Below, piece after piece: positions 3,340-27,248 of a DNA stretch of 36,764 bases. The position numbers and the translations under genes were made by a program. The stretch lies in the NCBI GenBank assembly GCA_031406795.1, contig JANOHV010000218.1:1-36764 (forward strand). Reading direction: 5' to 3'. This DNA is from DATDCY01 sp031406795 [NCBI: Candidatus Rokuibacteriota bacterium]. Lineage in GTDB: Bacteria > JAUVQV01. Numbering within the stretch: position 1 is the first letter of the stretch; each line of letters begins with the position of its first letter. The notes under the pieces were generated by a model. It was not told the origin of the DNA, did not search any database, and saw only the letters and a list, made by a program, of their open reading frames with translations.

Positions 3340-4218
3340 GTGAGCGAGATCGATTACCGGGAGTTGAAGCGCGGCGGCGTGATGCGCCAGCAGGGGGAAG
3401 ACCGCTTTCTGGTGCGGCTGCACCTGGTTGCCGGTGGACTAAGTAGCGGCCAGGCCCGTGTGGTGGCTGAGGCAGCGGACCAGTTCGGCAGCGGTGCACT
3501 GCACTTAACGAGCCGTCAGGGGATCGAGATCCCGGACGTCAGTTCCGGTGCGCTGACAGAGCTCAAAGAGTTCTTGGCATCCTCTGGGATAGGATTCGGG
3601 GTCAGCGGGCCGACCGTTCGCGGTGTCACTGCCTGCCAGGGCTGCCACGTCTGCCCGAATGGCGTCATCGACAGCCCGAGTCTGGCGGCGGAGGTTGATC
3701 GTGCGTTCTACGGAAAACATGCGCCCCACAAGTTCAAGGTCGGCATCAGCGGCTGCGCGAACAACTGCCTCAAAGCCGAGGAGAACGACCTCGGCGTCAA
3801 GGGGTGGATCGAGCCGCGCTGGAGCGGAGATGGTTGCACCGGCTGCGGTCTCTGCGTTGCAGTCTGCCCGGTGAAGGCGATTCGGATCGGCGGTGACAGC
3901 GGATCCGTCGAGATCGAGACCGCTCGCTGCATAGGATGCGGAGACTGCATTAACTCCTGCCCGACGACCGGCATGGTGGAGCAGACACGTGGTTACCGGA
4001 TCTACTTTGGGGGTAAACTGGGACGTGTACCTTACCTGGGGCAGCCGGTGTCCGGAGTGTTCACCGGTACCGCGGGTGTCCTCGGCGTCATCGCGGAGGC
4101 CCTGGAGTTCTTCCGACTTCACGGGCGTGCCCGCGAGCGCTTCGGCGACACGCTTCAGCGCGTGGGCTTCGAGACATTGGCGGCGCACATCGGCGCGCCG
4201 GCGAGGAGGGTCGCATGA
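3340..4218 (+). CDS. Small siroheme/4Fe-4S sulfite (nitrite) reductase-like protein with 2x[4Fe-4S] ferredoxin domain
   Basis: 292 residues from a GTG start with a strong GGGAGGTGAT ribosome binding site; a longer frame upstream has no good site. An N-terminal ferredoxin-like half-domain with LTSRQGIEIP is followed by the siroheme-4Fe4S pattern C99-x5-C105 and C139-x3-C143. An inserted ferredoxin has two full clusters, C166/169/172/176 and C197/200/203/207. The single-unit architecture matches AsrC and the small dissimilatory-sulfite-reductase-like proteins (Dsr-LP) of anaerobes and methanogens. Probable role: cytoplasmic reduction of sulfite to sulfide, supplying the sulfur carriers encoded nearby. 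Nitrite or another oxoanion is possible. It overlaps a truncated TusA-like frame by ATGA. Confidence 0.82.
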   Translation: MSEIDYRELKRGGVMRQQGEDRFLVRLHLVAGGLSSGQARVVAEAADQFGSGALHLTSRQGIEIPDVSSGALTELKEFLASSGIGFGVSGPTVRGVTACQGCHVCPNGVIDSPSLAAEVDRAFYGKHAPHKFKVGISGCANNCLKAEENDLGVKGWIEPRWSGDGCTGCGLCVAVCPVKAIRIGGDSGSVEIETARCIGCGDCINSCPTTGMVEQTRGYRIYFGGKLGRVPYLGQPVSGVFTGTAGVLGVIAEALEFFRLHGRARERFGDTLQRVGFETLAAHIGAPARRVA

Positions 4219-4280
4219 CACGGCGCCTGGACATTCAGCGCTACATCTGCCCGATGACCACCGTCAATCGACCACGATGA
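4215..4280 (+). pseudogene. Truncated TusA-like sulfur carrier
   Basis: The ATG overlaps the stop of the preceding gene (ATGA). It reads TRRLDIQRYICPMTTV, the N-terminal strand and CPM active-site motif of TusA-family carriers, then hits a stop after four unrelated codons. The remaining 50-60 residues expected for TusA are not found in any frame up to 4376. It is therefore the stump of a second tusA-like gene that was translationally coupled to the sulfite-reductase-like gene. Too short for an automatic caller. Confidence 0.5.
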
Positions 4281-4376
4281 TGCCGATGACCAACAGTGAG
4301 GAGAAGATAAAATCCCAGCGACGATCGGCGTCGTTATGTGGCTGTAGAGGTAAACTCCAACCGGTCGCAAGCCCTC

Positions 4377-4613
4377 TCAGGATTTCCTGATAAGAAACCG
4401 GAACAGGCCCTCGCTTCGGTTTGTTTCGATGATCGCGTGCCCGAGCCTCTGGACCAGTGCGCTGATGTCCGATTCCGATCCGAAGTCAGTGGCCATGACT
4501 TCCATGACCTGGCCGGAAAGGAGCCGGGCCAGGCCCCGCTTGGTGTTCAGCACCGGCATCGGGCAAGCTTGCCCTCGCGTGTCGACCACCAGATCGACTT
4601 TGATCTCAGGCAT
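4377..4613 (-). CDS. tusA: TusA-family sulfur carrier protein
   Basis: 78 residues from an ATG with AGGGAG upstream; longer upstream starts would read through the sigma-54 promoter. It carries the signature RGQACPMPVL with the persulfide-carrying C17, and the beta-alpha-beta-alpha-beta-beta pattern of TusA/SirA proteins. TusA relays persulfide sulfur between desulfurases, DsrE-like proteins and acceptors. It is transcribed divergently from the sigma-54 activator, and a consensus -24/-12 promoter lies 50-65 bases before its start, so it is a likely target of that activator. Family certain; exact partner unknown. Confidence 0.88.
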   Translation of the reverse strand: MPEIKVDLVVDTRGQACPMPVLNTKRGLARLLSGQVMEVMATDFGSESDISALVQRLGHAIIETNRSEGLFRFLIRKS

Positions 4614-4661
4614 CGTCTGCTCCCTTCGGTCAATGGTTTGACGCCACTCCTGGACTGGATA

Positions 4662-4679
4662 TTGCAAGAGGAGTGCCAG
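4662..4679 (-). promoter_or_regulatory. Consensus sigma-54 (-24/-12) promoter of tusA
   Basis: On the minus strand it reads TGGCACTCCTCTTGCA, an exact TGGCAC-N5-TTGCA match with GG and GC 12 bases apart. Predicted transcription starts near 4651, leaving a leader of about 38 bases before the tusA ATG. It sits in the 104-base divergent region shared with the activator gene. Confidence 0.8.
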
Positions 4680-4717
4680 CAACATCGCGTAATGCAAGGT
4701 GTTAAGATGATGACGTC

Positions 4718-6212
4718 ATGACGAGCCAGGCAACCCCTCCGCAGCCTCCGGGAGACCGGTTCTCGATCCTGTACGACATCGCCCTGACGGTCGGCAAGTC
4801 GCTCGATCTCAAGAGGATTCTGGACGATGTTCTCGACCGGATCATCCGTTTCATGGGCGTCGACGCCGGCGTCATTTATGTCGTCGACGACGCAACCATG
4901 GAGATGATACCCGTCTCGTTCAGGAATTTGTTGGAAGAGGTCGTCAGGGACCTCAGCGAAAAAAAGGTGAAAGTGGGCGAATGCATGTGCGGGACCATTG
5001 CACAATGCAATCAGGAGGTGATCATCACCGAACGGGCATACGAAGACCCGCGATTCACGCGTGGTGTGCTGAAGAAGGAGGGTATGGAGTTCTACGCCGG
5101 CCTCCCCATCCTCGCCAGAGGCAAGGTGGTGGGCGTGCTCTGCGTCATCAACCACACCCCCTACCAGCTCGACCGTGAACTTCTCGACATTCTCAGGGCT
5201 GCGACGCAGCCGATCGGCCTTGCCATCGAGAATGCCCGGATTTTCGAAACCGTCAGGAAGGAGGCGGACGCGAGGATTCGCTACTTCAACTTCGAGGGGA
5301 TTATCGCCAACAGCCCCAAAATGACCAGCATCCTCAGCCTCGTGCGGAAGATCACCGATGTGCCCACGAGCATCCTGATCTACGGGGAAAGCGGCACCGG
5401 CAAGGAATTGATCGCGCGGGCCATCCACTTCAACAGCATCCGCAAGGACCGGCCCTTCGTCGCCGTCAACTGCGCTGCCCTCCCGGAGAGCCTGCTGGAA
5501 TCGGAGCTCTTCGGTTACGTCAAGGGCGCTTTCACCAGGGGCCGGCGCCGACAAGAAGGGGCTCTTTGAGGCAGCCGACAACGGCACCATGTTTCTGGAC
5601 GAAGCGGAGGCAATGAGCGGCAATCTGCAGGTCAAGCTGTTGCGGGTCCTGCAGGATGGCGCTTTTCTCAAGGTCGGGGGCACGCAACCGTGCCAGGTGA
5701 ACGTGCGGATCATCGCGGCCTCGAACAGAAACCTCGAGGAGGCGATCCGGGAGAAACGCTTCAGGGAAGACCTCTACTATCGGCTGAACGTGATCCGTAT
5801 CGATCTGCCGCCGCTTCGGGACCGGCGCGAAGACATTCCCCTGCTGACGAGATACTTCATGGCAAAATACAGCAGGAAGATCGGAAAAAATGTTCGCAGA
5901 ATCGCCGACGACGCAATGCAGGCGCTGGTGTGGTATCCCTGGCCAGGCAATATCCGAGAGCTCGAGAACATGGTCGAACGCGCGCTGGTAGTGACCGAAA
6001 CCGACGAAATCAGAAAAGAAGACCTGCCTGTCGAACTGCTGGGCAGAGCGGACGATATGCACAAAGACCTCACCCTGAAGTCCATCGAGAAGGACCACAT
6101 CTTCCACGTACTGAAACTTACCGGGGGCAACAAGAAACTGGCGGCGCGAGAGTTGGGGGTGAATGCTGCCACCCTCTGGAGAAAATTGAAGTCGTTCGCT
6201 GAGGCCCACTGA
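4718..6212 (+). pseudogene. GAF-sensor sigma-54-dependent activator (NtrC family), one-base frameshift
   Basis: The gene reads as an N-terminal GAF sensor (about residues 15-185, with a Cys-containing GECMCGTIAQC stretch), an AAA+ domain and a Fis-type helix-turn-helix at the C-terminus (LAARELGVNAATLWRKL). Walker A is GESGTGKE; Walker B reads MFLDEAE. The frame breaks at 5537: one extra A after the codons for GAFT. Removing it restores GAFTGAGADKKGLFEAA and the frame to 6212. Read literally, the first product stops at 5569 after a normal GAF and partial AAA+ domain. The break lies in the GAFTGA loop that contacts sigma-54, so a true mutation would abolish activation. A sequencing error is equally possible. 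It lies between tusA and the osmC-like gene, both with -24/-12 sites, and is the natural activator of the cluster. Confidence 0.85.
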
Positions 6213-6223
6213 TTGCATTTTGC
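6210..6223. repeat. Putative activator-binding direct repeat, copy 1
   Basis: TGATTGCATTTTGC, identical to the copy exactly 90 bases downstream at 6300. It begins in the stop codon of the activator gene and lies upstream of the sigma-54-like site before the osmC-like gene, where enhancer sites would be expected. Confidence 0.4.
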
Positions 6224-6299
6224 CGAATCGCTGTATTTCGTATTATTTCAATAACTTATCGTGATTTTTCCTGGATCACCCGCAATTGACCCTTCGTTG

Positions 6300-6313
6300 T
6301 GATTGCATTTTGC
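6300..6313. repeat. Putative activator-binding direct repeat, copy 2
   Basis: TGATTGCATTTTGC followed by AA, giving a small dyad TTGCA-TTT-TGCAA. A related TTGCATTACGC lies on the minus strand just upstream of the tusA -24 box (4687-4697). Confidence 0.4.
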
Positions 6314-6435
6314 AAGACTGTTCGACTGCAAGGCCGCTGAGTGATCCTGTTCAAACTGACTCTTGCTGCCCAAATCCGGGCGCTTTGCCTTTCTTTCAGC
6401 TTGGGCAAACCATGAAAGACCGGTCTCGGTGATTA

Positions 6436-6450
6436 TGGCATGGCTCATGC
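6436..6450 (+). promoter_or_regulatory. Probable sigma-54 promoter of the osmC-dsrE pair
   Basis: TGGCATGGCTCATGC keeps the GG and GC 12 bases apart, with one deviation in each box (TGGCAT and ATGC). Predicted start near 6461, about 24 bases before the ATG and just before GGAGGA. The rest of the 6213-6484 gap has the two direct repeats and no gene. Confidence 0.5.
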
Positions 6451-6484
6451 AATTGCCCATGCAAACCTACACGGAGGAACGGCG

Positions 6485-7015
6485 ATGACGATGATCAACG
6501 GTCTCGAAGTGGACAACCTGGTCAAGGTAGTCGAGGCGGTCAAGCAGAAGTGGGAGATGGGCAAGACGGTCTGGAAGGCCTCAACCACATGGAAGGGCGG
6601 CTTCAAGGTCGAGACCTGTTCGCGCGACTTCACGCTGCTGGCGGACGAGCCGGAGATGCTCTGCGGCACCAACACGGCGGCCAACCCCGTCGAGATGGTC
6701 CTTCAGGCGTACGGCGCCTGCCTCTCGATCGGCTACGCGATGAATGCGGCGGTCCGCGGGATCAAGATTCATGACCTGAAGATCGATCTCGAAGGCGAGA
6801 TCGACCTTCCCGGCTTTCTCGGTCTCGAAGCACCCGAGAACCTGAAGATGGACAAGCTCCCCGGCTTCAAGACCATCGATGTGAAGGTAAAGATCAAGGC
6901 CGACGCCACTGCGGAGGCGCTTCGTCAGCTCCACGCGCACGTGGTGGGCACCTCTCCGGTCGGCGTTACGCTCGCGCGTCCGGTCAAGATCGTCACGGGC
7001 GTGGAGGTCTTGTGA
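6485..7015 (+). CDS. OsmC-family protein, sulfur-transfer type
   Basis: 176 residues starting at an ATG seven bases after GGAGGAACGGCG. The OsmC fold is recognisable by the GTNTAANPVE-YGACLSIGYA region with the conserved C79. In classical OsmC/Ohr peroxidases a second cysteine occurs in a C-P-V motif; here the equivalent reads TSPVGVTL with serine, so two-cysteine peroxidase chemistry is unlikely. Other cysteines are C45 and C60. Such OsmC-like proteins often accompany TusA and DsrE in sulfur-relay loci, and a persulfide carrier role is inferred. It overlaps the next gene by four bases (GTGA), so the two are co-translated. Confidence 0.8.
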   Translation: MTMINGLEVDNLVKVVEAVKQKWEMGKTVWKASTTWKGGFKVETCSRDFTLLADEPEMLCGTNTAANPVEMVLQAYGACLSIGYAMNAAVRGIKIHDLKIDLEGEIDLPGFLGLEAPENLKMDKLPGFKTIDVKVKIKADATAEALRQLHAHVVGTSPVGVTLARPVKIVTGVEVL

Positions 7016-7431
7016 TCCAGCTGCTCGGTCAGACGGCGACGGATGAGCGCCTCTCCTGTGCCGAGCAGCCGCACTATGCGATCGTCTGCGCCACCGGATT
7101 CGAGAACGAGGAGCGGGTCCGGTCGGCGCTGATGTTCGCGGCATTGGCGGCCTCGGCGGATTACCAGACCGTCCTGTACTGCATCCAGGGCGCGGTTGAA
7201 GTGATGGTGAAGGGTGCGATCGCAGCGCGCGAGACGCCGCGACCGGGCCTGCCATCGATCGCCCAGCGGCTGCAGGAGGCTTTGGAAATGGGGGTGACGA
7301 TTCAGTGCTGCACCCAGACCATGGCGAACAAGGGCATCTCCCCCGCTGATCTCGTGGACGGCGTGGCTCCAGCTGGGGCAATGAGCCTGATTGCATTGAC
7401 GACCCGCGCGAAGGGCACGATCAGCTTCTGA
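7012..7431 (+). CDS. DsrE/DsrF-like sulfur relay protein
   Basis: 139 residues from a GTG inside the stop of the osmC-like gene. The DsrE fold is indicated by strand VLYCIQGAVEVM and the conserved cysteine segment IQCCTQTMANKGI (C99, C100) followed by the LVDGV helix and a terminal IALTTRAKGTISF strand. DsrE-like proteins carry persulfide sulfur and exchange it with TusA. It is co-expressed with the OsmC-like protein and convergent with the next, minus-strand gene. It has no obvious separate partner equivalent to DsrF or DsrH, so it may act as a homo-oligomer. Confidence 0.8.
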   Translation: MIQLLGQTATDERLSCAEQPHYAIVCATGFENEERVRSALMFAALAASADYQTVLYCIQGAVEVMVKGAIAARETPRPGLPSIAQRLQEALEMGVTIQCCTQTMANKGISPADLVDGVAPAGAMSLIALTTRAKGTISF

Positions 7432-7440
7432 TTCTGAGCA

Positions 7441-7471
7441 CCGTCGGGGGAGGACAGCCCTCTCCCGGCGG
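7441..7471. terminator. Hairpin between convergent genes
   Basis: A GC-rich imperfect stem, CCGTCGGGGGAGG pairing with CCTCTCCCGGCGG around a short ACAG-type loop, sits 10 bases past the dsrE-like stop. No T tract follows on either strand, so termination efficiency is uncertain. Confidence 0.35.
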
Positions 7472-7535
7472 CGCTCCGAAATGCAAGAGGTACGATTGAT
7501 ATTGGAAAGCGCAAATATCATGACAGTCAAGCTGG

Positions 7536-8462
7536 TCAGCCGTGGTAATGATCGGGCTCCGGGTGGATCGAATCGATAAGGGTGCGGTCGAATATCTCCT
7601 GTTCTGCGACCTCGCGGCCGATGTAGCCGAGCCGCCTGAGCGCTCGTGCGAACGTCATCGTCGCGGCGACGTACGGTTCGGTCAGCCGGGCACAGTAGTG
7701 CGGCGAGACTTGAAGCGTCTCGAGGATAAAGTCCCTGTCGATGATCCCGACATGCGCCGCGATGTCCCTGGCGGCCGAATCCGGATCCGACCGAAAGACG
7801 GCAGTCGCTTCCTCGTGCAGCCGCAGGAACCGCTCCACACAAGAGCGGTGATCTTCGAGAAATGGTCGGGAGACAATGACCCCGTAGCTGGGATTGCCGG
7901 GCCAGAGCCGGGAGGGCGGATAGAGAATCCTGCCGCCGGCAAAGCGGCGGATCGCGACGGCGAGCGCCGGCGTCCCGACAGCGGCGGCCACTTCATTGTT
8001 GACAACGGCCTCGGTCACCAGATCGGCCCATGGGTAGTTCACGACCTCGATCTTGCCGGAGAGATCGTGTCGTTCAAGACAGTCCTTGAGGATGACGTCG
8101 TGTATCGACCCCGTACCCGGCACGCCGAGTTTCAAGCCATCGAACTGACGGAGAACGTCTCCGAGGTCGTCGAGTTCCGGGAAGCCCCGCCAGCAGTCCC
8201 TGCCGGCCATCACGGTGCCTTCGATGTGCCCGCCCGCCACACAGACCACGCTGCTCCCACGCTCGATGCCGATGATCGCGGGCGGCAACCCGATGTAGGC
8301 CAGATCGAGCTCGCCGCGGCCGAAAGACGCCATGATCGCGGGCCCCGTCCCCATGAGCCGCCACTCGACGCCGACGCCGAGCCGCTCCGGCACGGTGCCT
8401 CGAGCCATGAGCAGCACGGCGGTGTGGTAGAAGGTCGACAGGTGCCCGATTCGAACGATCAT
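7536..8462 (-). CDS. Solute-binding-fold (NMT1/SsuA/THI5-like) protein without signal peptide
   Basis: 308 residues starting MIVRIGHLSTFYHTAVLLMA, directly in the first strand of the periplasmic-binding-protein fold. Motifs typical of the sulfonate/taurine/HMP binding family follow: GELDLAYIGLPPAI, GLKLGVPGTGSIHDVIL, and a hinge near NEVAAAVGTPALAVAI. There is no signal peptide or lipobox, and no ABC permease or ATPase genes lie nearby. It may therefore be cytosolic: a binding sensor or, like THI5, MqnA and MqnD of the same fold, an enzyme. It is encoded opposite to the cluster, convergent with the dsrE-like gene and divergent from the cysteate-synthase-like gene. A start upstream at 8481 in another frame is not supported. 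Function unknown. Confidence 0.75.
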   Translation of the reverse strand: MIVRIGHLSTFYHTAVLLMARGTVPERLGVGVEWRLMGTGPAIMASFGRGELDLAYIGLPPAIIGIERGSSVVCVAGGHIEGTVMAGRDCWRGFPELDDLGDVLRQFDGLKLGVPGTGSIHDVILKDCLERHDLSGKIEVVNYPWADLVTEAVVNNEVAAAVGTPALAVAIRRFAGGRILYPPSRLWPGNPSYGVIVSRPFLEDHRSCVERFLRLHEEATAVFRSDPDSAARDIAAHVGIIDRDFILETLQVSPHYCARLTEPYVAATMTFARALRRLGYIGREVAEQEIFDRTLIDSIHPEPDHYHG

Positions 8463-8640
8463 GGGACTGTAGTAGCCTCATGCCGGGCCGGCGTCAAGGC
8501 GGGCGGGAGACTTGGCTGCCCCGCCCGGGGTTGCCGCGTTGCCGGCCGCTGTGATACGTATTTGCCATGAGAACCGCGTTCCGCTGCACGAGCGACAGTC
8601 GCCCCGCGCGTTGCGACGAGCGCGATACGGACAATCCCTC

Positions 8641-9900
8641 ATGAGCCACTTCGGACTGCGGTGCCGCAAATGCGCAAAGCTACTCCAGGACACCTACTGC
8701 GCGTTCTGCGAGCACTGCCGCGACGCGCTGCTCGTGAGCGACTACGGCGGCGCGCGGTTTTCGGAAATGAGCGGGGAGGGGATCTGGCGATTCAACTGGC
8801 TCCCGGTGCACGCGCCCTCCTTTGCGCAGCCGGGGCCCAGCGTCTACCGATCCCGCGGGCTCGCGATGCACTTCGGGCTCGAAAACCTCTCCGTGGTGTT
8901 CAATGGCTACTGGCCGGAGAAAGGCGCTTTTCTCGAGACCTGCACCTTCAAAGAGTTCGAAGCCTCGGTGGTGTTGCAGAACGCGCGGGAGAATGGCGTC
9001 GAGGGGCTGACCGTCGCATCGGCGGGAAACACAGCGCGATCTTTCGCGTACCTTTCGGCGCAGACCGGCTACCCGGTGGTCATCGTGGTGCCGGCGATGT
9101 GCCTGACCGAGATGTGGTACCACAAGCGATCAAAGGACGTCCCCACGGTTGTGGTCGCCGACGGCGACTACTCCGACTCGATCGACGTCGCCCGGCGGAT
9201 TGCGGCGACTCTCGGATTTCCGTTCGAAGGCGGCGTCAAGAATGTCGCCAAGCGTGACGGACTCGGCCTGGTGCTGCTCGAGGCGGTGGCTGCGCTGAAG
9301 AGCCTCCCGGGCCACTACTTCCAGGCGGTGGGAAGCGGCACGGGAGCCATCGGTGTCTGGGAGATGAGTGAGCGTTTTCTCGCCGATGGGCGGTTCGGCT
9401 CCCGGCTCCCGGTTCTGCACCTGGCGCAGAACCTGCCGTTTGCGCCGATGACAAAGGCCTGGGCGCGCCAGGAGCGGCACCTCGAGCCGGCGGATCTGTT
9501 GCCGGAGCTGATCCCCGAGATCACGACGAGAGTACTCTCCACGCGTTATCCGGCGTACACGATCGCAGGCGGCGTCTATGATGCCCTCACCGCCACCCGG
9601 GGGAGGATGTACGGCGTGCGCAATGGGGAGGTCTACGCGGCGATGGAGTTGTTCCGTCGGCTGGAGGGAGTCGATATCGTCCCCGCTGCCGGGGTTGCCG
9701 TTGCCGCGCTGGCGCAGGCAGTCGCCGCCGGCGTGCTGCGGCCGGACGAGACCGTGGTGCTGAACATCACCGGCGGCGGGGAAACGAACCTGGCGCCGGA
9801 GCTCATGACCCGGACGCTGCGCCAGCACATCGTGTCGAAGGCGATCACGCACAAGGAAATCAAGGAGCTGCTGTGTCCCGTCCTGAAGAAGAGCTGCTAG
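8641..9900 (+). CDS. Cysteate-synthase-like, threonine-synthase-family PLP enzyme
   Basis: 419 residues, close to the length of archaeal cysteate synthase. An N-terminal zinc-ribbon-like segment has C8-x2-C11, C20-x2-C23-x2-C26. The PLP lysine is K104 in CTFKEFEA, where true threonine synthases have SFKDRG. The phosphate-binding ASAGNTARS loop follows, then the GSGTGAIG glycine loop. In Methanosarcina this enzyme makes L-cysteate from O-phosphoserine and sulfite. The immediate overlap with a ComDE-type decarboxylase strongly supports that reading. Alternative: a PLP synthase using sulfide from the thiocarboxylate carrier encoded downstream. The ATG at 8641 is chosen because the Cys motif starts right after it; its ribosome binding site is weak. 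Confidence 0.78.
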   Translation: MSHFGLRCRKCAKLLQDTYCAFCEHCRDALLVSDYGGARFSEMSGEGIWRFNWLPVHAPSFAQPGPSVYRSRGLAMHFGLENLSVVFNGYWPEKGAFLETCTFKEFEASVVLQNARENGVEGLTVASAGNTARSFAYLSAQTGYPVVIVVPAMCLTEMWYHKRSKDVPTVVVADGDYSDSIDVARRIAATLGFPFEGGVKNVAKRDGLGLVLLEAVAALKSLPGHYFQAVGSGTGAIGVWEMSERFLADGRFGSRLPVLHLAQNLPFAPMTKAWARQERHLEPADLLPELIPEITTRVLSTRYPAYTIAGGVYDALTATRGRMYGVRNGEVYAAMELFRRLEGVDIVPAAGVAVAALAQAVAAGVLRPDETVVLNITGGGETNLAPELMTRTLRQHIVSKAITHKEIKELLCPVLKKSC

Positions 9901-11021
9901 GGATCCTCAGCGCAAACGGTACGGACTTCACGGCCTCGCTGCCCTGCGAGAAGATCAAAGTCCTGCTCGAGATGCTCGGCAGGACGTTTCCCCACGTGCC
10001 GCTCACGCGCGAAGAAGAGGGGGTGGGGATCTGCGCCGGCGCTTCCCTCGCGGGCCGCCGGCCGGCGATGTTCGTTCAAAGCTCCGGCATTGGCAACATG
10101 ATCAACGCGCTTCTCTCGTTGACCGATTTCTACGAGCTGCCGCTGGCGCTCTTCGTGAGCCGTCGCGGCGTTTACCAGGAGCGGATCGCCGCACAGCTGC
10201 CGATGGGTCTGCGGCTACCCGGCATGCTCGACGGCGCAGGGATTCCGTGGACAGAGGTCAACGTTCGCGGGGATCTTGCGGCGGTGGCGCGCATTTTGCC
10301 GCAGGTCTATGAACGCGGCGGCATTCACGCCTTTCTGATGAGTCCAGCGGTGTGGGAGGATTCCGAGTGCCAGGGTGGTGGTGCGCCAGCGATCGGTGCT
10401 CGGCGGTCGTGCCGGCCGGAATGCCCCGAACCGACCGGAGGGTGCCGCCGCCCGATCCCGGTACACACTCGTTTCGAGATCCTGCGGCTGATCGCCCCGC
10501 AGCTCGAGGGGAAGGTCGTCGTCTGCAACCTTGGCGCCCCCTCGAAGGAGTTGTACTCCCTGCGGCACCAGCCGTCGAATTTCTACATGCTCGGCAGCAT
10601 GGGCATGGTTACGCCGATCGGTCTCGGGGTGGCGCTCTCGACGCTGCGGGAGGTCGTGGTCATCGACGGCGACGGCAGCCTGCTGATGAACCCAGGCACG
10701 CTCGCGGTGTGCGCGGCCGCGGCGCCGAAGAATCTGACCATTCTCGCCATCGACAACGGGGCCTACGGTTCGACCGGCAGCCAGCCGACCCACGCGGCCA
10801 CCTGCGTCGACCTCGAGCAGGTGGCGCACGGGTTCGGCGTCGCGAATACCCTGAAGACGGCGGGGGGGGCGGATCTGATCGCGGCGATGGGCACGTGCGG
10901 GGAAGGCCCGCTGTTCGTTCACGCGCTTGCCGTGCCGGGAAATGCGGAGGTTCCGAATATTCCACTGGATCAACTGGAGAACAAGCGCCAGGTGATGGCA
11001 TTTCTTCACGCAGGCTGCTAG
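9873..11021 (+). CDS. comDE: Fused sulfopyruvate decarboxylase (ComD-ComE)
   Basis: 382 residues from a GTG with AAGGAG at 9862-9867, overlapping the cysteate-synthase-like gene by 28 bases. The N-terminal half matches ComD: ASLPCEKI, the TREEEGVGICAGASLAG catalytic-Glu region and QSSGIGNMINAL. The C-terminal half matches ComE: APSKELY, FYMLGSMGMVTPIGLG and the thiamine-diphosphate GDG motif (GDGSLLMNPG, then AIDNGAYGSTG). A Cys-rich linker (residues about 160-190) joins them. The reaction is sulfopyruvate to sulfoacetaldehyde plus CO2, the step before coenzyme M in archaea. Phosphonopyruvate decarboxylase is the closest alternative, but no PEP mutase or phosphonate gene is present. Confidence 0.88.
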   Translation: MSRPEEELLGILSANGTDFTASLPCEKIKVLLEMLGRTFPHVPLTREEEGVGICAGASLAGRRPAMFVQSSGIGNMINALLSLTDFYELPLALFVSRRGVYQERIAAQLPMGLRLPGMLDGAGIPWTEVNVRGDLAAVARILPQVYERGGIHAFLMSPAVWEDSECQGGGAPAIGARRSCRPECPEPTGGCRRPIPVHTRFEILRLIAPQLEGKVVVCNLGAPSKELYSLRHQPSNFYMLGSMGMVTPIGLGVALSTLREVVVIDGDGSLLMNPGTLAVCAAAAPKNLTILAIDNGAYGSTGSQPTHAATCVDLEQVAHGFGVANTLKTAGGADLIAAMGTCGEGPLFVHALAVPGNAEVPNIPLDQLENKRQVMAFLHAGC

Positions 11022-11055
11022 AGCCGACCGGTTTCCCGCCGGGGGCTCTTCCCCG

Positions 11056-11084
11056 TTGACAAGACTCATGCGGAAGATGATATT
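11056..11084 (+). promoter_or_regulatory. Possible sigma-70 promoter before the thiF-like gene
   Basis: Perfect -35 TTGACA (11056-11061), 17-base spacer and -10 GATATT (11079-11084). It lies in the 132-base gap between comDE and the thiF-like gene, so the sulfur-carrier genes may have their own promoter. Confidence 0.4.
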
Positions 11085-11153
11085 CACCGCCAGATGGTGG
11101 ACCAACAAGATCATTCAGGCGACAGGACGCTGGAGAAACCTCGGGTCTGAGTC

Positions 11154-11954
11154 ATGGAATTCACGGAAGAGCAGATCCTCCGCTACAGCCGTCACCTCAT
11201 TCTCCCCGAGGTCGGGGGCGATGGGCAGGAACGACTCCTGAACGCGAAGGTGGCGCTCGTGGGGGCCGGCGGTCTGGGCTCCCCGGTCGGGTATTATCTC
11301 GCCGCGGCGGGGGTCGGCACCATCGGCGTGATCGACGACGACCGGGTGGAATTCTCGAATCTCCAGCGCCAGATCGCCCACAGCACGCGGCAGGTCGGCA
11401 CGCTCAAAGCCGAGTCGGCCAAGACGACCTGGGAGGCGCTCAACGGCGACGTGCGAGTGATCGCCCACGCGACGCGGCTCACGGCCGCGAACATCCGCGA
11501 AATCATCGGGGAGTACGACATCGTCGCGGACGGCAGCGACAATTTCCCGACGCGCTACCTGGTGAACGACGCCTGTGTCATGATGAAAAAAACGCTGATC
11601 AGCGCCGCGGTCTTCCGCTTCGAGGGGCAGGTGATGGGGATTTACCCAGGAGAAGGTCCGTGCTACCGCTGTCTCTTCGAAACCCCGCCGCCGGCCGGCA
11701 TGGTGCCCTCCTGCCAGGAGGCCGGCGTTCTCGGCGTGGTGCCCGGCGTCATCGGCACGCTGCAGGCGACGGAAGTGCTCAAGGCGATCCTGGGCATCGG
11801 CGACCCGCTGCGCGGCCGTCTACTGATCTGGAACGCGCTTGAGATGAGCTTCACGACCGTGAATGTCCCGCGCAACCACGAGTGCCCGGTCTGCGGCGAC
11901 CACCCGACGATCATCAACCTGCTCGGCGGCGAACGCTCCTGCAGCATGGGATGA
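11154..11954 (+). CDS. ThiF/MoeB/HesA-family adenylyltransferase for a sulfur carrier
   Basis: 266 residues, full length for MoeB/ThiF without a rhodanese domain. The nucleotide-binding loop is GAGGLGS (37-43), followed by IDDDRVEFSNLQRQ. Zinc ligands are C170-x2-C173 and C244-x2-C247, and the Cys loop is C187 in SCQEAGVLG. It adenylates the C-terminal glycine of a ubiquitin-like carrier so that sulfide can be loaded as a thiocarboxylate. The adjacent JAMM protease and carrier make a HcyF/HcyD/HcyS- or CysO/Mec-type set rather than a Moco set; no moaE or thiG is near. Its stop overlaps the next start (ATGA). Confidence 0.9.
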   Translation: MEFTEEQILRYSRHLILPEVGGDGQERLLNAKVALVGAGGLGSPVGYYLAAAGVGTIGVIDDDRVEFSNLQRQIAHSTRQVGTLKAESAKTTWEALNGDVRVIAHATRLTAANIREIIGEYDIVADGSDNFPTRYLVNDACVMMKKTLISAAVFRFEGQVMGIYPGEGPCYRCLFETPPPAGMVPSCQEAGVLGVVPGVIGTLQATEVLKAILGIGDPLRGRLLIWNALEMSFTTVNVPRNHECPVCGDHPTIINLLGGERSCSMG

Positions 11955-12391
11955 GCACTGCCGCCCTGACGATGGCCGGTGATGTACTTGCGGCAATCCT
12001 CGAACATTGCCGCCGGGAACTGCCGAACGAGGCGTGCGGGATCCTCGGCGGCAGGGCCGGCAGGGTCGAGAGCGTCCATCCGGTGCAAAGTGCGCACCCG
12101 AGTCCTTCGCGTTTCGCTATGGAACCGACGGCGCAGTTCCTGGCGATGGACGAGGTGAGCCGCGCTGGCCGGGAACTGGTGGGGATCTATCACTCTCACC
12201 CGGGCGGGCCTGCCGTTCCGTCAACTACCGACCTGCAGGAGGCCTGCTGGCCGGGGACGACGTTGCCGAATTACCCCGAGGCAATTCAGGTGATTGTGTC
12301 GCTCCTGGAGCGCGCCGCACCGGTCGTGAGGGGGTACGCAGCGGATCGGGGGATGTTCGTTGAAGTGCCGATTATCATTGACGAACGATAA
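11951..12391 (+). CDS. JAMM/Mov34 metalloprotease (Mec+/HcyD-like)
   Basis: 146 residues. Complete JAMM zinc site: E27 in ELPNEACG, then HSH (H81, H83), x7, S91 and D94 in HSHPGGPAVPSTTD. Bacterial stand-alone JAMM proteins cleave the isopeptide-like bond between a ubiquitin-like sulfur carrier and newly made cysteine (Mec+), or trim extra residues from the carrier tail to expose Gly-Gly (HcyD type). The carrier encoded next ends in GG plus two residues, which favours a trimming role. It is translationally coupled to the ThiF-like gene by ATGA. Confidence 0.88.
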   Translation: MSTAALTMAGDVLAAILEHCRRELPNEACGILGGRAGRVESVHPVQSAHPSPSRFAMEPTAQFLAMDEVSRAGRELVGIYHSHPGGPAVPSTTDLQEACWPGTTLPNYPEAIQVIVSLLERAAPVVRGYAADRGMFVEVPIIIDER

Positions 12392-12421
12392 GCAGTTGGA
12401 TGACACAATGCGGAGGAGCTC

Positions 12422-12700
12422 ATGCCGGTCACCGTCAGGATTCCCACGCCGCTGCAGCGGTTCTCGGGTGGCAAGTTGAATGTGTCGTGCAGCGCGACGA
12501 GCATCGAGGGATTGTTGGAAGCCCTGGAGATGGCGCACCCGGGGATGAAGGAACGACTGACCGTTGGCGGTAAGGTTCGTCCCTTCATCAATATCTATGT
12601 CAACGGCGAGGACATCCGCACCCTTGACGCGGAGGCCAGTGTGCTCAAAGATGGCGACACAGTCGCGATCATTGCCGCCATTGCGGGTGGTCACGGATAG
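12422..12700 (+). CDS. ThiS/MoaD/CysO-like sulfur carrier with GGHG tail
   Basis: 92 residues, with an excellent GGAGGAG ribosome binding site. It has a beta-grasp fold with the usual features: VRIPTPLQRF start, SIEGLLEAL helix, INIYVNGEDIR and LKDGDTVAIIAAIAGG end. The C-terminus is GGHG rather than a bare GG, so the carrier must lose two residues before the ThiF-like enzyme can activate it. The JAMM protease next door is the obvious candidate. The likely product is a protein thiocarboxylate delivering sulfide to a biosynthetic PLP or reductive enzyme. It is the last gene of the sulfur cluster. Confidence 0.87.
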   Translation: MPVTVRIPTPLQRFSGGKLNVSCSATSIEGLLEALEMAHPGMKERLTVGGKVRPFINIYVNGEDIRTLDAEASVLKDGDTVAIIAAIAGGHG

Positions 12701-12739: not shown

Positions 12740-12815
12740 ACTGAAGGGGCAGGCCTCAAAGTCGCGGGGGGGGTGATTGGAGGGTATAACCGGCAGGAGA
12801 GGCACTTCGATTGCG

Positions 12816-12850
12816 GAATAGTCTCCAGTACGCTGAAGAATAGTCTTCAG
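12816..12850. promoter_or_regulatory. Tandem enhancer sites for a sigma-54 activator
   Basis: GAATAGTCTCCAG at 12816-12828 and GAATAGTCTTCAG at 12838-12850, 22 bases apart, that is two helical turns on one DNA face. The second is part of a perfect dyad CTGAAGA-ATAG-TCTTCAG (12833-12850). They lie about 85-105 bases before the predicted start of the efflux operon, the usual place for NtrC-family enhancers. Confidence 0.6.
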
Positions 12851-12901
12851 CCCTCTTCGATCTGCCCTGACTTAAGTATCTTAATACTGATAGTTACCTG
12901 C

Positions 12902-12918
12902 TTGGCATCACAATTGCT
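12902..12918 (+). promoter_or_regulatory. Sigma-54 promoter of the metal efflux operon
   Basis: TTGGCATCACAATTGCT: TGGCAT-N5-TTGCT with GG and GC 12 bases apart, one mismatch from consensus. Transcription would start near 12928, just before AGGAGGAGGAAGGC and the ATG at 12947. Confidence 0.75.
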
Positions 12919-12946
12919 TTCCAGTAGATCACAGGAGGAGGAAGGC

Positions 12947-14317
12947 ATGACGAGCGACATCCGGAGCTGGACGACGGCAACAAGAACGGTCGCCATGATC
13001 GCCGGCGTCGCGCTGGTCGTGCTGGCGTGCTCGCCGACGGCGCGGGCGGAGACTCCCCCGGGAGCACCAGTTCACGTTGCGGAGGCGGCCGCCCTCGAAG
13101 CAAACCTGGCCGGGAAGGCGGCGCTGAGCGACCTCGTCGCCATCGCTTACCAATCCAATCCGATGATCCGCGCGGCGCGCGCCGAGTGGCGCGGCACCGT
13201 AGAGAAGTACCGCGTCGACACGTCCTGGCCCGAACCCGAGCTGATGGCGGAGGGGATGTACGCTGCGGACACCCTGGGCGAGACGACAAGACCGATGGGC
13301 TGGAGCCTCGGACTGACTCAGGCGATCCCGCTGTGGGGCCGTCAGGGGAGCGCCGGAAGACTGAGCAGCGCCGAAGCGAAAATCGCCAGGCTCAAGCTGG
13401 ACGCCACGCTCCGGGACGTCGTTGTCCAGATCCGCCAGTCTGCCGCCGAGCTGCGCTACCTCGAGACGGCCGTGGAAATCGTGCAGGGCCAGCAGTTGCT
13501 GCTCGGAAAACTGACGGCGGCGGGTGCCGCGGCCTACACCGCGGAGCGCGCCGGCCTCTACGAAGTGATGAAGGCGCGCGCGCAGTCCGGTCAACTCGAT
13601 TACGACGCCCTGCTCCTCGAGGAGTCGGCGCGCACGGAAAAGGCGCGGCTCAACGCCCTGCTCCATCGCGCCCCGGACGCGCCGATCGGGCCGATCACGG
13701 CGGAGCCGGCCCGGCCCGTGTTGTACGAGCTCCACGAAATCGATGCGTTGGCCGACGCCAACGCCGAGGACCTGCGGATCGCCCGCGCCGAGGTGGAGCG
13801 CAGCGAGGCGATGGCGGACCTCACGCAATACGAAACCCTCCCGGGATTCAAGCTCGGGCTCTCCTATGGACTGGCGAACGAGGTGAATCAGGTCGGGATT
13901 CAGGCCACCGTGATGCTGCCCCTGCGGCGGGGGAAGAACGCCGGGCTGCTCGGCGCGGCCCGGGCCGACAGCGACAAGATGCGGGCGATGTACGGCGCAA
14001 AGATGAATGACACCCGCACCGCGGTCCGGGATCTCGCTTTTCGGCTCAAGAACGCCGAGCGGCTCGTGAGCCTCTACCGTGACGACCTCACCCCGCAGGC
14101 CGAACGCGCCCTGCAAACGGCGCAGACCCGCCTCGCTCAGGGTCTCGGCGGCCTCGGCGACGCCGCGGAGGCGCAGAGCGCCTGGTACGGCTTCCGGCTG
14201 GCTCTTGCGCGCGCGGAGGCGGATCGCACCGTCATGCTGGCGAGACTCGAAGCGCTCGCGGGCCGCAGCCTGACCGAACGCGAGGACGCTGTCGTCCGCC
14301 CGGAGGAGGCGAAATGA
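12947..14317 (+). CDS. TolC/CusC-like outer-membrane efflux protein, first copy
   Basis: 456 residues starting after AGGAGGAGGAAGGC; a cleavable signal sequence covers about residues 1-35 (VAMIAGVALVVLACSPTARA). The body is alpha-helical with the OEP repeat pattern (ALSDLVAIAYQSNPMIRAARAEW near the N-terminus, then LGLTQAIPLWGRQ). A second half-repeat has NTRTAVRDLAF-type helices. It would form the trimeric outer-membrane duct for the RND pump encoded downstream. First gene of a sigma-54-driven operon, and it overlaps the next gene by ATGA. Metal specificity cannot be read from it. Confidence 0.85.
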   Translation: MTSDIRSWTTATRTVAMIAGVALVVLACSPTARAETPPGAPVHVAEAAALEANLAGKAALSDLVAIAYQSNPMIRAARAEWRGTVEKYRVDTSWPEPELMAEGMYAADTLGETTRPMGWSLGLTQAIPLWGRQGSAGRLSSAEAKIARLKLDATLRDVVVQIRQSAAELRYLETAVEIVQGQQLLLGKLTAAGAAAYTAERAGLYEVMKARAQSGQLDYDALLLEESARTEKARLNALLHRAPDAPIGPITAEPARPVLYELHEIDALADANAEDLRIARAEVERSEAMADLTQYETLPGFKLGLSYGLANEVNQVGIQATVMLPLRRGKNAGLLGAARADSDKMRAMYGAKMNDTRTAVRDLAFRLKNAERLVSLYRDDLTPQAERALQTAQTRLAQGLGGLGDAAEAQSAWYGFRLALARAEADRTVMLARLEALAGRSLTEREDAVVRPEEAK

Positions 14318-15876
14318 GCAAACGCATCGGGCTGCTGTTCGCGGCGCTGGCGCTGGCCGTCCAGCCGGCGTGCGCGTCGAAATACCGGACGCTCAAAGGC
14401 GAGGCGGACGCCTACACCCCATCCCCGTTGTATCTCGGCTTGGCGAGTGGGGCGCCTGCTCCGGCGGCGGCTCCGGCGACGCCGCTCGCGGAGGCGGGGG
14501 AATTCGCGGCGGCCTCCCTGCGCCTGGGGGATCTGGCCGCGCAGTGGGAGCTGACGCTTCAGCGTCCGGAGGCGGCGGATTCGTTCATCGTGCCCGAAGC
14601 CGACCTGCTGCGCGCGCTCGCCGGCGCCGCCGCCGACCCCGCCGTTGCCGGCCAGGCACTCGGCGACGGCTTCTCTCTGCAGACGCTGGAGACCTTGACG
14701 CTGCTGCGCAACCCGACGATCAGAACCCGGGAGGCCGAGGCGCGCGCCGCCATCGAGGTCTTCGGACAGGCGGAGCAGATCGATGCGGTTCTGCGCCGCT
14801 ACGCCGCCCTCACCGCAACCTCGATGGCCGGCGGCGGGATGGGTGCCCCGCCGGATTTCCCGTTCCCCGCAATCCTCGCTCTGAAGGGGCAGATCATCGA
14901 CCAGGAGCTGCGCAGCGCCCGCGAAATGTTCGAGGCGGCGAGGCGCGACACGGTCACCGCGGCGCGCACGGCGTACTGGGAACTGATCTACGTCGGCCAG
15001 GCCGCGGAGATCACCAGCCGCATGATCGATCTGCTCGAGAATCTGGACCGCTCGGTCGCCTCACGCTACGAGGCGGGCAAGACCAGCTTCCAGGACCTGG
15101 TCCGCATCCGCATCGAGCGCGAGAAAGCGCGGGAGGAACTCAAGACCCTGGCGGAGGAGCGCGCCAACCGGGCGGCCGAAATCCGCGGCCTTCTGGCGCT
15201 GCCGCCCGAAATCGTGGTGGGGACCCCGGCGTTTCGCGAGGACTGGGCGCCGCTCCCCGCGCAGGGAGAACTGGAGACGCTCGCCCTCGCGCGGCGTCAG
15301 GAAGTGCGGGCCGCCGACGCGATGATCGGCCGGATGGAGCGGATGCTGGAGATGGTCGAGACCATGACGTACCCGGGGTACGATCTCGGACTCTCGCCCT
15401 CGCCGCGCGGGCTGATCGCGCCGCCTGCCGACGGCCCCGGGATGGGAGCAGCGGCCGGGGGTCCCGGGGCGCGAGCCGCCGTCGCCGCGAGACCACCGGA
15501 GCGGCCGTTCTTCGCGGGTGACGAAGCGTATGTGCGCGAGATCCGCCAGCGAATTGCGGGTCTGAAGAGCGAACGTGAGGCGGTGCGCGCGGAGACGCTC
15601 GTCGGCGTGCGGGCCGCCTGGTTCGCCTCGGATCGCGCCCGGCGGGAAGAAGCGCTCTATGCGGCGAAAGTGCTCGGGCTCTCCCAGAGCGCCCTCGAAT
15701 CCTCCCTCCAGGGGTACTCGTCCGGGAGCGTGGGGTTCTCCGATCTTCTCGAATCCTACACGGGCTGGCTCGAGGCCAGCCTCGCTCGCCAGAGGGCGCG
15801 CGTCGACATCGGGATCGCCCGGTCCGGCCTCGAGGCGGCGGTCGGTGTCGCGAACCTCGAGGGGGCCGAAAATTAG
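14314..15876 (+). CDS. TolC-like outer-membrane efflux protein, second copy
   Basis: 520 residues, starting in the stop of the preceding gene. The N-terminal export signal ends near QPACAS, possibly a weak lipobox at the Cys. A low-complexity Ala/Pro stretch (residues about 45-70) precedes an OEP domain. Landmarks are LLRNPTIRTREAEARAA, long coiled helices, and a C-terminal repeat with SALESSLQGYSSGSVGFSDLLES. It is unlike the first copy in length and sequence, so it is not a recent duplication. Two outer-membrane factors in one RND operon is unusual; the second could replace the first, form a mixed duct or serve another adaptor. Confidence 0.83.
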   Translation: MSKRIGLLFAALALAVQPACASKYRTLKGEADAYTPSPLYLGLASGAPAPAAAPATPLAEAGEFAAASLRLGDLAAQWELTLQRPEAADSFIVPEADLLRALAGAAADPAVAGQALGDGFSLQTLETLTLLRNPTIRTREAEARAAIEVFGQAEQIDAVLRRYAALTATSMAGGGMGAPPDFPFPAILALKGQIIDQELRSAREMFEAARRDTVTAARTAYWELIYVGQAAEITSRMIDLLENLDRSVASRYEAGKTSFQDLVRIRIEREKAREELKTLAEERANRAAEIRGLLALPPEIVVGTPAFREDWAPLPAQGELETLALARRQEVRAADAMIGRMERMLEMVETMTYPGYDLGLSPSPRGLIAPPADGPGMGAAAGGPGARAAVAARPPERPFFAGDEAYVREIRQRIAGLKSEREAVRAETLVGVRAAWFASDRARREEALYAAKVLGLSQSALESSLQGYSSGSVGFSDLLESYTGWLEASLARQRARVDIGIARSGLEAAVGVANLEGAEN

Positions 15877-15899
15877 CAAAGACATTCGCGATCTGCCTC

Positions 15900-15975
15900 G
15901 GGAGGGTCTGAAACCCTCCCCTACATCCCGGATCGGGAACAACGTAGGGGCGGGATTTATTCCCGCCCGAAAGGC
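15900..15975. repeat. Pair of CCCCTAC-ended palindromes in inverted orientation
   Basis: Copy 1 (15900-15925): GGGAGGGT-CTGAA-ACCCTCCC then CTAC. Copy 2 (15944-15975): GTAGGGG then CGGGA-TTTAT-TCCCG-CCC. The two face each other across a TCCCGGATCGGGA centre. The CCCCTAC head also ends the palindrome at 12-38. This is REP/BIME-like and fills the 123-base gap inside the efflux operon, where it could shape mRNA stability between outer-membrane and adaptor genes. Confidence 0.65.
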
Positions 15976-15999
15976 ATAACCGCAGAAGGAGCGAGGATC

Positions 16000-27231: not shown

Positions 27232-27248
27232 AGCAAATGCCGTGCCAA
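27232..27248 (-). promoter_or_regulatory. Consensus sigma-54 promoter of the MFS transporter
   Basis: On the minus strand TTGGCACGGCATTTGCT: TGGCAC-N5-TTGCT, fully consensus. Start near 27221, giving a leader of about 190 bases. Confidence 0.8.

What the first reader, a model, noticed from the sequence alone, without database searches (positions are those of the whole stretch)
3340..12700. Bacterial sulfonate/thiol cluster that could make coenzyme M or a relative
Seen: a cysteate-synthase-like enzyme overlapping a fused ComDE, a ThiF/JAMM/ThiS sulfide-delivery set, TusA, OsmC-like and DsrE-like carriers and a small sulfite-reductase-like protein, in about 9 kb. Known: archaeal cysteate synthase and ComDE convert phosphoserine + sulfite to cysteate, and sulfopyruvate to sulfoacetaldehyde. 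Thiocarboxylate carriers supply sulfide to biosynthesis. Inference: sulfite is split between the sulfonate sulfur and, after reduction, the thiol sulfur of one product such as coenzyme M. Neither the cysteate aminotransferase nor a final thiol-forming enzyme is in the window. The known Xanthobacter coenzyme M route is not seen here, as no ComA or Xcb-type gene was found.
Basis: partly seen in the sequence, partly recalled or inferred. Interest (0 to 1): 0.92.

Follow-up and report, generated by a model that had tools for sequence, protein, structure and literature searches.

The report
Archaeal-type coenzyme M pathway in bacteria
This stretch of bacterial DNA carries the two signature genes that methane-making archaea use to build coenzyme M; relatives show the pair linked to genes for moving methyl groups, and an overlooked neighbouring gene is a candidate for the missing last step.

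Summary
The PLP enzyme passes the cysteate-synthase cut-off (455 bits against 325), a fused ComDE overlaps it, and the other named genes are present. The sequence groups with Nitrospirota. Of 395 genomes of that phylum, 59 carry cysteate synthase over the cut-off. All 59 carry one MtaA-type methyltransferase ortholog; 0 of 21 cs-negative genomes do. Where the flank could be read, cs-comDE usually ends an operon of two MtaA-like enzymes, MtrH, a corrinoid protein, its activator and HdrDE-like genes. That makes coenzyme M the likeliest product, although no MCR was found (0 of 59).

I propose it as the missing thiol-forming enzyme. Against exclusivity: 27 of 118 MMP16-positive archaea also have it, some beside sulfate-assimilation, ThiS and ThiF genes. 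Nothing is biochemically shown.

The parts
3340..4218 (+). small sulfite-reductase-like protein (SiR ferredoxin-like half domain, 4Fe-4S siroheme domain, inserted 2x[4Fe-4S])
   Evidence: Pfam NIR_SIR 97 bits, NIR_SIR_ferr 58.6; 39% identical to a protein in the archaeal SsuA-like island L168
4377..4613 (-). TusA-like persulfide carrier; exact sigma-54-type promoter match at 4664-4678 on the same strand, about 50 bases upstream of the likely start
   Evidence: PF01206 74.8 bits; exact promoter pattern 2 found, 0.05 expected, 0 of 100 shuffles reach 2
4718..6212 (+). GAF/sigma-54 enhancer-binding regulator, read in two frames (4718-5569 and 5589-6212)
   Evidence: Sigma54_activat, GAF, HTH_8; open without a stop for 489 codons from the match start in the relative L192
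6440..7015 (+). OsmC-like protein
   Evidence: PF02566 65.3 bits; 69-79% identical in L190, L191, L192 beside DsrE
7012..7431 (+). DsrE-like sulfur carrier
   Evidence: PF02635 54.8 bits; ortholog between cs and comDE in L118
7536..8462 (-). SsuA-fold protein without visible signal peptide; proposed coenzyme M synthase or another step acting on a sulfonate
   Evidence: PF13379 64.7 bits; profile over phylum and archaea; predicted fold Z 31 to SsuA
8641..9900 (+). cysteate synthase (open frame from 8512)
   Evidence: TIGR03844 455.1 bits over cut-off 324.9; PDB 9k3c 286.7 bits; tree
9873..11021 (+). fused sulfopyruvate decarboxylase ComDE, overlapping cysteate synthase
   Evidence: TIGR03845 over cut-off; TIGR03846 213.1 against 221.5; next to cs in 50 of 52 genomes that could be judged
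11154..11954 (+). ThiF/MoeB-like E1 adenylyltransferase
   Evidence: PF00899 273.9 bits
11882..12391 (+). JAMM (Prok-JAB) metalloprotease
   Evidence: PF14464 85.5 bits
12422..12700 (+). ThiS/MoaD-like carrier ending ...AGGHG, i.e. Gly-Gly plus a two-residue tail
   Evidence: PF02597 50.4 bits; tail read

Best explanation
The core is a bacterial coenzyme M biosynthesis locus of the archaeal phosphoserine type. Cysteate synthase adds sulfite to phosphoserine to give cysteate; an unlinked aminotransferase gives sulfopyruvate; ComDE decarboxylates it to sulfoacetaldehyde (these steps are inferred from family membership). The thiol is then put in without MMP16. My candidate is the SsuA-fold protein encoded divergently from cysteate synthase: it would hold sulfoacetaldehyde by its sulfonate and receive sulfur from a carrier (ThiS thiocarboxylate, TusA or DsrE persulfide). 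This last step is inference, about 0.4 likely. In Nitrospirota relatives coenzyme M would serve a corrinoid methyl-transfer operon (two MtaA-like enzymes, MtrH, corrinoid protein, RACo-like activator) with an HdrDE-like membrane disulfide reductase, and no methyl-coenzyme M reductase.
For: Equivalog-level cysteate synthase overlapping ComDE. 59 of 395 phylum genomes carry cs over the cut-off. The MtaA2 ortholog, with HxC...C invariant in the 9 aligned, is in 59 of 59 cs-positive and 0 of 21 cs-negative genomes. Operon: comDE next to cs 50 of 52; HdrD-like upstream 47 of 52; activator 32 of 34; corrinoid protein 31 of 33; mtaA2, mtrH, mtaA1 29 of 29 judged, 24 of 53 not judgeable. In L011 the second MtaA-like protein passes the methylcobalamin:CoM methyltransferase subfamily cut-off (278.9 against 244) and MtrH passes that of the MtrH family protein. 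SsuA-like: 56 of 59 cs-positive (325 bits or more), 0 of 60 cs-negative. No MMP16 over the cut-off in 26 Nitrospirota genomes with cs (one a fragment) and 3 genomes of the Hydrothermarchaeota group. Among 14 archaeal cs genomes with no COG1900 match at 1e-25, 11 have the SsuA-like protein. It follows comDE directly in the three Hydrothermarchaeota-group loci and precedes cs-comDE in L216. Predicted fold: SsuA Z 31.1, TauA Z 29.8, and the same fold as the enzymes Thi5, MqnD and DszB. His13, Cys74, His79, His121, His216 invariant in 57 of 57; His7, Cys257, His300 in 56.
Against: No chemistry is shown. The window's genome is not held, so its methyltransferase operon is assumed from relatives. The SsuA-like protein does not replace MMP16 strictly: in a class sample 27 of 118 MMP16-positive cs genomes also carry it, 6 of 20 MMP16-negative cs genomes do not, and 3 of 11 cs-negative ones do. 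In 10 archaeal loci from MMP16-positive genomes it lies beside ThiS and ThiF with sulfite reductase or CysH mostly in reach, and in L228 beside CysK-like and CysE-like genes (named by eye), which also fits a role in sulfur assimilation. Three cs-positive Nitrospirota lack a high-scoring copy (G001 none, G019 95 bits, G228 55 bits). The HdrD-like and HdrE-like proteins of L011 pass no NCBIfam cut-off. MtaA-like enzymes can serve folate rather than coenzyme M in acetogens (recalled). Fisher values treat related genomes as independent. TIGR03846 misses its cut-off for the window ComDE.
Confidence: 0.7

Rival explanations
1. The pathway stops at another sulfonate: cysteate, sulfoacetaldehyde, taurine or isethionate is the product, and the methyltransferase operon uses folate or another acceptor.
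For: Bacteria outside Nitrospirota have cs without a ComDE match in the locus fetched (cyanobacteria, Bacteroidales, Aminicenantes, Lentisphaeria, Spirochaetales). No MMP16 over the cut-off and no MCR in the Nitrospirota tested.
Against: Each of the 59 cs-positive Nitrospirota genomes carries the MtaA2 ortholog, and cs usually shares an operon with it and an HdrDE-like pair where flanks allow; such a set is expected for coenzyme M, not for an osmolyte.
Confidence: 0.2
2. The SsuA-like protein is not the coenzyme M synthase but serves sulfur assimilation: a cytosolic sulfite or sulfonate binding protein, a sensor, or a homocysteine or cysteine sulfur-transfer enzyme.
For: In 10 archaeal loci it is beside ThiS with ThiF near (sulfite reductase in reach in 7, CysH in 9 of the 10), and in L228 a CysK-like gene follows it directly. 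In the class sample it is found in 28 MMP16-positive genomes and in 3 without cs.
Against: Near-perfect pairing with cs in Nitrospirota (56 of 59 against 0 of 60), runs with cs-comDE in Hydrothermarchaeota-group loci and in L216, and enrichment where MMP16 is missing (14 of 20 against 27 of 118 cs genomes).
Confidence: 0.4
3. The ThiF/JAMM/ThiS, TusA and sulfite-reductase genes of the window are an ordinary sulfide-assimilation neighbour with no part in this pathway; they resemble the HcyF/HcyD/HcyS methionine system.
For: None found within 9 kb of cs in 53 relatives, on the flank that could be read. The ThiS tail AGGHG with a JAMM protease fits trimming as recalled for HcyS/HcyD of Wolinella.
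Against: The same gene types (JAMM not sought) are clustered with the SsuA-like gene in distant archaea, and ThiF begins 132 bases after comDE on the same strand.
Confidence: 0.45
4. Misassignment: threonine synthase and phosphonopyruvate decarboxylase.
For: Both belong to the same superfamilies.
Against: Threonine synthase models score at most 85 bits against cut-offs of 167-421; the phosphonopyruvate decarboxylase score is 120 bits under its cut-off; the best PDB match is a cysteate synthase; in the tree the sequence lies among archaeal and Nitrospirota cs.
Confidence: 0.03

Closest known systems
Type 2 coenzyme M pathway of Methanosarcina acetivorans (cysteate synthase MA3297, ComDE MA3298, MMP16 MA3299; PMC12068725, abstract, passages and sections 6 and 12 seen)
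   Same: cysteate synthase followed by fused ComDE; the aminotransferase is unlinked
   Different: bacterial; no MMP16 over the cut-off in the relatives tested; the SsuA-like protein is present instead; linked in relatives to a methyltransferase/HdrDE-like operon
Bacterial coenzyme M pathway of Xanthobacter autotrophicus Py2 (Wu et al. 2022, not held; known here through passages of PMC12068725)
   Same: bacterial coenzyme M
   Different: that route starts from phosphoenolpyruvate through ComA; here cysteate synthase and ComDE; no ComA-type family was hit by the window proteins scanned, the rest of the genome untested
SsuA/TauA sulfonate-binding proteins of ABC importers
   Same: predicted fold, Z about 30 over some 280 residues; Pfam NMT1_2
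   Different: no visible signal peptide, no transporter genes beside it in the window, invariant His and Cys set
Thi5, MqnD, MqnA and DszB: enzymes with the same fold (names from the hit list; MqnA recalled for the entries titled Enzyme of biosynthetic pathway)
   Same: enzymes built on a binding-protein fold
   Different: other substrates; 10-15% identity in the alignments
HcyF/HcyD/HcyS and CysO thiocarboxylate systems (recalled)
   Same: E1, JAMM protease and a carrier with Gly-Gly and a C-terminal tail
   Different: target enzyme unknown here

Membership tests
Cysteate synthase | equivalog model TIGR03844 over cut-off | tested here: met
   455.1 bits, cut-off 324.9
Cysteate synthase | TCTFKE lysine and SAGNTA stretch shared with PDB 9k3c | tested here: met
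   K147 and N173 invariant in alignment A1 of 4; the role of the lysine is recalled
Cysteate synthase | makes cysteate from phosphoserine and sulfite | not testable with these tools
   needs enzyme assay
Sulfopyruvate decarboxylase ComDE | both subunit models over cut-off in one chain | tested here: inconclusive
   alpha 165.3 over 147.95; beta 213.1 under 221.5; 7 of 16 aligned proteins pass beta, the window not among them
Archaeal type 2 coenzyme M pathway | cs and ComDE together | tested here: met
   overlapping genes; adjacent in 50 of 52 relatives judged
Archaeal type 2 coenzyme M pathway | MMP16 (ComF) | tested here: not met
   0 of 26 Nitrospirota genomes with cs over cut-off; tested in relatives only, own genome not held
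Xanthobacter-type bacterial pathway | ComA and Xcb genes | not tested
   own genome not held; no such family among the window proteins scanned
ABC-importer sulfonate-binding protein | fold and Pfam family | tested here: met
   Pfam; predicted fold Z 31
ABC-importer sulfonate-binding protein | export signal and partner permease/ATPase | tested here: not met
   window frame and 13 of 16 relatives have one start codon, at or a few residues before the first strand; L017, L119 and L023 allow longer starts (read by eye, no signal predictor run); no transporter gene among the window proteins of 3.3-12.7 kb scanned
Coenzyme M synthase | forms coenzyme M from sulfoacetaldehyde | not testable with these tools
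   inference from profile, neighbourhood and fold only
MtaA-type methylcobamide:thiol methyltransferase (relatives, not the window) | family cut-off and HxC...C zinc motif | tested here: met
   L011 second MtaA-like protein 278.9 over 244; H242, C244, C320 invariant in 9

The most novel reading that the evidence does not exclude
A cytosolic sulfonate-binding-fold protein is a second, non-COG1900 coenzyme M synthase, used by Nitrospirota bacteria, Hydrothermarchaeota and the methane oxidiser Methanoperedens and fed by thiocarboxylate or persulfide carriers; and a branch of Nitrospirota runs a coenzyme M-based methyl and disulfide metabolism (soluble Mtr-like system plus HdrDE-like reductase) without methyl-coenzyme M reductase.
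Probability: 0.35. Interest if true: 0.95.

Novelty: new variant of a known kind. Interest (0 to 1): 0.85.

Why it matters
Coenzyme M is known in archaea and in some alkene-using bacteria (PMC12068725, passages); an archaeal-type pathway in a branch of Nitrospirota, tied to a corrinoid methyltransferase and HdrDE-like operon but without MCR, would point to an undescribed coenzyme M-dependent metabolism in bacteria. The conserved SsuA-fold protein gives a concrete candidate for how organisms without MMP16, including Methanoperedens, put the thiol into coenzyme M. PMC12068725 (discussion) says that its data do not rule out a non-orthologous enzyme. Both claims can be tested with single genes.

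Tried and rejected
Threonine synthase and phosphonopyruvate decarboxylase readings: rejected on curated cut-offs. MCR: none in 59 cs-positive Nitrospirota or 3 Hydrothermarchaeota-group genomes. Further out there are weak leads not pursued: a TusA-like match about 9.6 kb from cs in L126 and an OsmC match (29%) about 11 kb away in L125. Strict exclusion between MMP16 and the SsuA-like protein: it appeared in the 43 archaeal genomes found through cs (1 both, 14 and 23 single, 5 neither), but an independent class sample gave 27 cs genomes with both, so I dropped it and speak of enrichment. The 5 with neither include G416, which has an MMP16 fragment at a contig edge. A conserved neighbour of the SsuA-like gene that would name its reaction: none over 57 loci beyond cs-comDE and its operon, a 198-residue unknown protein (22 loci), a nitroreductase-like gene (8) and regulators. 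DsrE ortholog: 24 of 59 cs-positive at 150 bits or more, 0 of 13 cs-negative, 0 of 3 archaea, so linked but not general. SsuA-type binding proteins followed by permease and ATPase come after comDE in L048, L059 and L034; they have hydrophobic N termini and are a different thing. Paper searches (capped listings only, except the abstract, passages and two sections of PMC12068725 and passages of PMC4683180 and PMC6286981): no listed title or abstract start describes coenzyme M synthesis in Nitrospirota; the library lacks most subscription journals and preprints, and the papers were not opened.

Full report
Observation. The gene set is real. The PLP enzyme scores 455.1 bits against TIGR03844 (cut-off 324.9), and by far its best match among solved chains is a cysteate synthase, 9k3c (286.7 bits; the next is a threonine synthase at 50.8). 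ComDE passes the alpha model and misses the beta cut-off by 8 bits; 7 of 16 proteins in an alignment of window and relatives pass it. Two genes in the same range were not reported: a sigma-54 regulator in two frames, and an SsuA-like protein divergent from cysteate synthase.

Where it comes from. No genome is held for the window. A tree of 75 cysteate synthases puts it inside a fully supported Nitrospirota group, beside L003 (96/90). The Hydrothermarchaeota group (L027-L029, one of them filed as Euryarchaeota) comes next, weakly supported (86/71); cyanobacterial and other bacterial enzymes form a separate group.

Neighbourhood in relatives. One search returned 80 loci (limit reached), 25 of them in Nitrospirota. 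In a phylum sample 59 of 395 genomes exceed the cs cut-off. I read the cs locus of 53 Nitrospirota genomes: comDE adjacent 50 of 52; HdrD-like upstream 47 of 52; HdrE-like 40 of 46; RACo-like activator 32 of 34; corrinoid protein 31 of 33; mtaA2, mtrH and mtaA1 29 of 29, the rest having too little flank. An SsuA-like hit lies within 9 kb of cs in 14 of the 53, one of them a 74-bit paralog. Families by Pfam and NCBIfam on L011: two URO-D/MtaA-like proteins (the second over the methylcobalamin:CoM methyltransferase cut-off), MtrH family (over cut-off), a methyltransferase cognate corrinoid protein (216.6 against 215.3), RACo-type activator, DUF6951, a DsrM-like membrane protein (70 bits, under cut-off) and a TfrB/DsrK/HdrD-like protein (177 bits, under cut-off). 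The MtaA2 ortholog is in 59 of 59 cs-positive and 0 of 21 cs-negative genomes, also where it lies on another contig than cs (G223, G250, G358). MCR alpha is in 0 of 59. So coenzyme M made here would not go to methane by MCR.

The missing step. [quoted passage not shown] None passes the cut-off in 26 Nitrospirota genomes with cs. The SsuA-like protein (7536-8462) has orthologs of 325 bits or more in 56 of 59 cs-positive and in 0 of 60 cs-negative phylum genomes, and in none of three cs-bearing bacteria without a ComDE match in the locus (G030-G032); Methanoperedens nitroreducens has it at 416.8 bits. Among 43 archaeal genomes found through cs, 15 have it (228 bits or more; the others at most 106), 24 have MMP16, 1 has both and 5 have neither (p 1.9e-6, relatedness ignored). 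Of 14 in which no COG1900 protein reached 1e-25 (at most 30 candidates a genome were scored), 11 have it; the others are G417 (1.2 Mb), G453 (1.9 Mb) and the Heimdallarchaeota genome G430. In an independent sample of 149 genomes of the class of Methanoperedens, 138 with cs, it is in 14 of 20 without MMP16 and 27 of 118 with it (p 6.5e-5, relatedness ignored). That is compensation-like, not exclusive. Three of the 11 cs-negative genomes in that sample have it too.

Its context. It follows comDE directly in L027-L029 and precedes cs-comDE in L216, from a genome without MMP16. L233 has ThiS 2.2 kb away and L235 has ThiF and sulfite reductase; in L228 a CysK-like gene (by eye) follows it directly, and in L234 such a gene lies within 3 kb. 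None of the loci read from MMP16-less archaea (L165-L167, L169-L172, L204, L216-L222) shows ThiS or ThiF near it. The window combines both settings: cs-comDE on one side, and sulfite reductase, TusA, ThiF, JAMM and ThiS around. The window's sigma-54, OsmC, DsrE cassette is conserved in L190 and L192 (in L191 OsmC and DsrE are in reach), and in L192 and, with a gap of about 1.2 kb, in L190 it faces an SsuA-like gene as here. In L118, whose genome lacks a high-scoring SsuA-like gene, a DsrE ortholog sits between cs and comDE.

Fold. AlphaFold2 on ten sequences gave pLDDT 90.8 and pTM 0.89. Best matches are SsuA (3e4r, Z 31.1, 2.6 A, 282 residues) and TauA (Z 29.8); Thi5, MqnD and DszB share the fold at Z 26, 22.5 and 18. 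No signal peptide is visible in the window protein or in the aligned relatives with the starts I chose; three relatives allow longer starts. In 57 sequences His13, Cys74, His79, His121 and His216 never vary; His7, Cys257 and His300 vary once. A protein that keeps a sulfonate-binding fold, appears to stay in the cytosol and has fixed His and Cys residues fits an enzyme acting on sulfoacetaldehyde. This is inference; I could not inspect the pocket.

Sulfur donor. The window ThiS ends AGGHG and has a JAMM protease beside it, which fits trimming to Gly-Gly (recalled from HcyS/HcyD); the archaeal L168 carrier already ends in GG. The small sulfite reductase could make sulfide from sulfite; PMC6286981 (passages) suggests for archaeal small sulfite reductases the reverse, sulfite for coenzyme M.

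What is shown and what is inferred. Shown: family membership, gene order, co-occurrence, absence of MMP16 and MCR matches in the genomes tested, a predicted fold. Inferred: all reactions, coenzyme M as product, the SsuA-like protein as synthase, the presence of the methyltransferase operon in the window's organism. The cs-negative genomes were drawn across the phylum and may belong to other classes, so co-occurrence is partly phylogeny.

Verdict. Coenzyme M (or a very close thiol) at about 0.7; the SsuA-like synthase at about 0.4.

Noticed in passing
window 5540-5620: The sigma-54 regulator is broken into two frames; the ortholog in L192 runs 489 codons from the match start without a stop. Sequencing error or decay cannot be told.
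   Followed up: partly
window 4664-4678 (-) and 27233-27247 (-): Two exact sigma-54 promoter patterns, 0.05 expected; the first lies about 50 bases upstream of the likely TusA start, beside the sigma-54 regulator. No exact match in L118, L190, L191 or L192.
   Followed up: partly
window 6210 and 6300: A 14-base repeat TGATTGCATTTTGC stands twice upstream of OsmC; a shorter or close form stands upstream of OsmC in L192 (6357), not in L190 or L191.
   Followed up: partly
L048, L059, L034: ANME-1-type loci have an MMP16-like gene, cs, comDE, then SsuA-, permease- and ATPase-like transporter genes (by eye), perhaps for a sulfonate such as coenzyme M.
   Followed up: no
L001, L002: Streptomyces plasmid records carry a cs relative (36-38% identity); in L001 it directly follows a giant gene that looks like a nonribosomal peptide synthetase (by eye), suggesting a sulfonate-bearing natural product.
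   Followed up: no
L064 12469-13209: In a Thermoplasmata genome cs-comDE is followed by a gene that looks like the COG2122/UPF0280 family (named by eye), recalled in connection with homocysteine synthesis.
   Followed up: no
L011 14833-15429 and relatives: A conserved protein of about 198 residues, not scanned against families, stands near the SsuA-like gene in 22 of 57 loci.
   Followed up: no
window 12773-20846: A CusC/CusB/CusA-like metal efflux set follows directly; 277-2991 looks like a type III restriction-type helicase (read by eye, not scanned).
   Followed up: no
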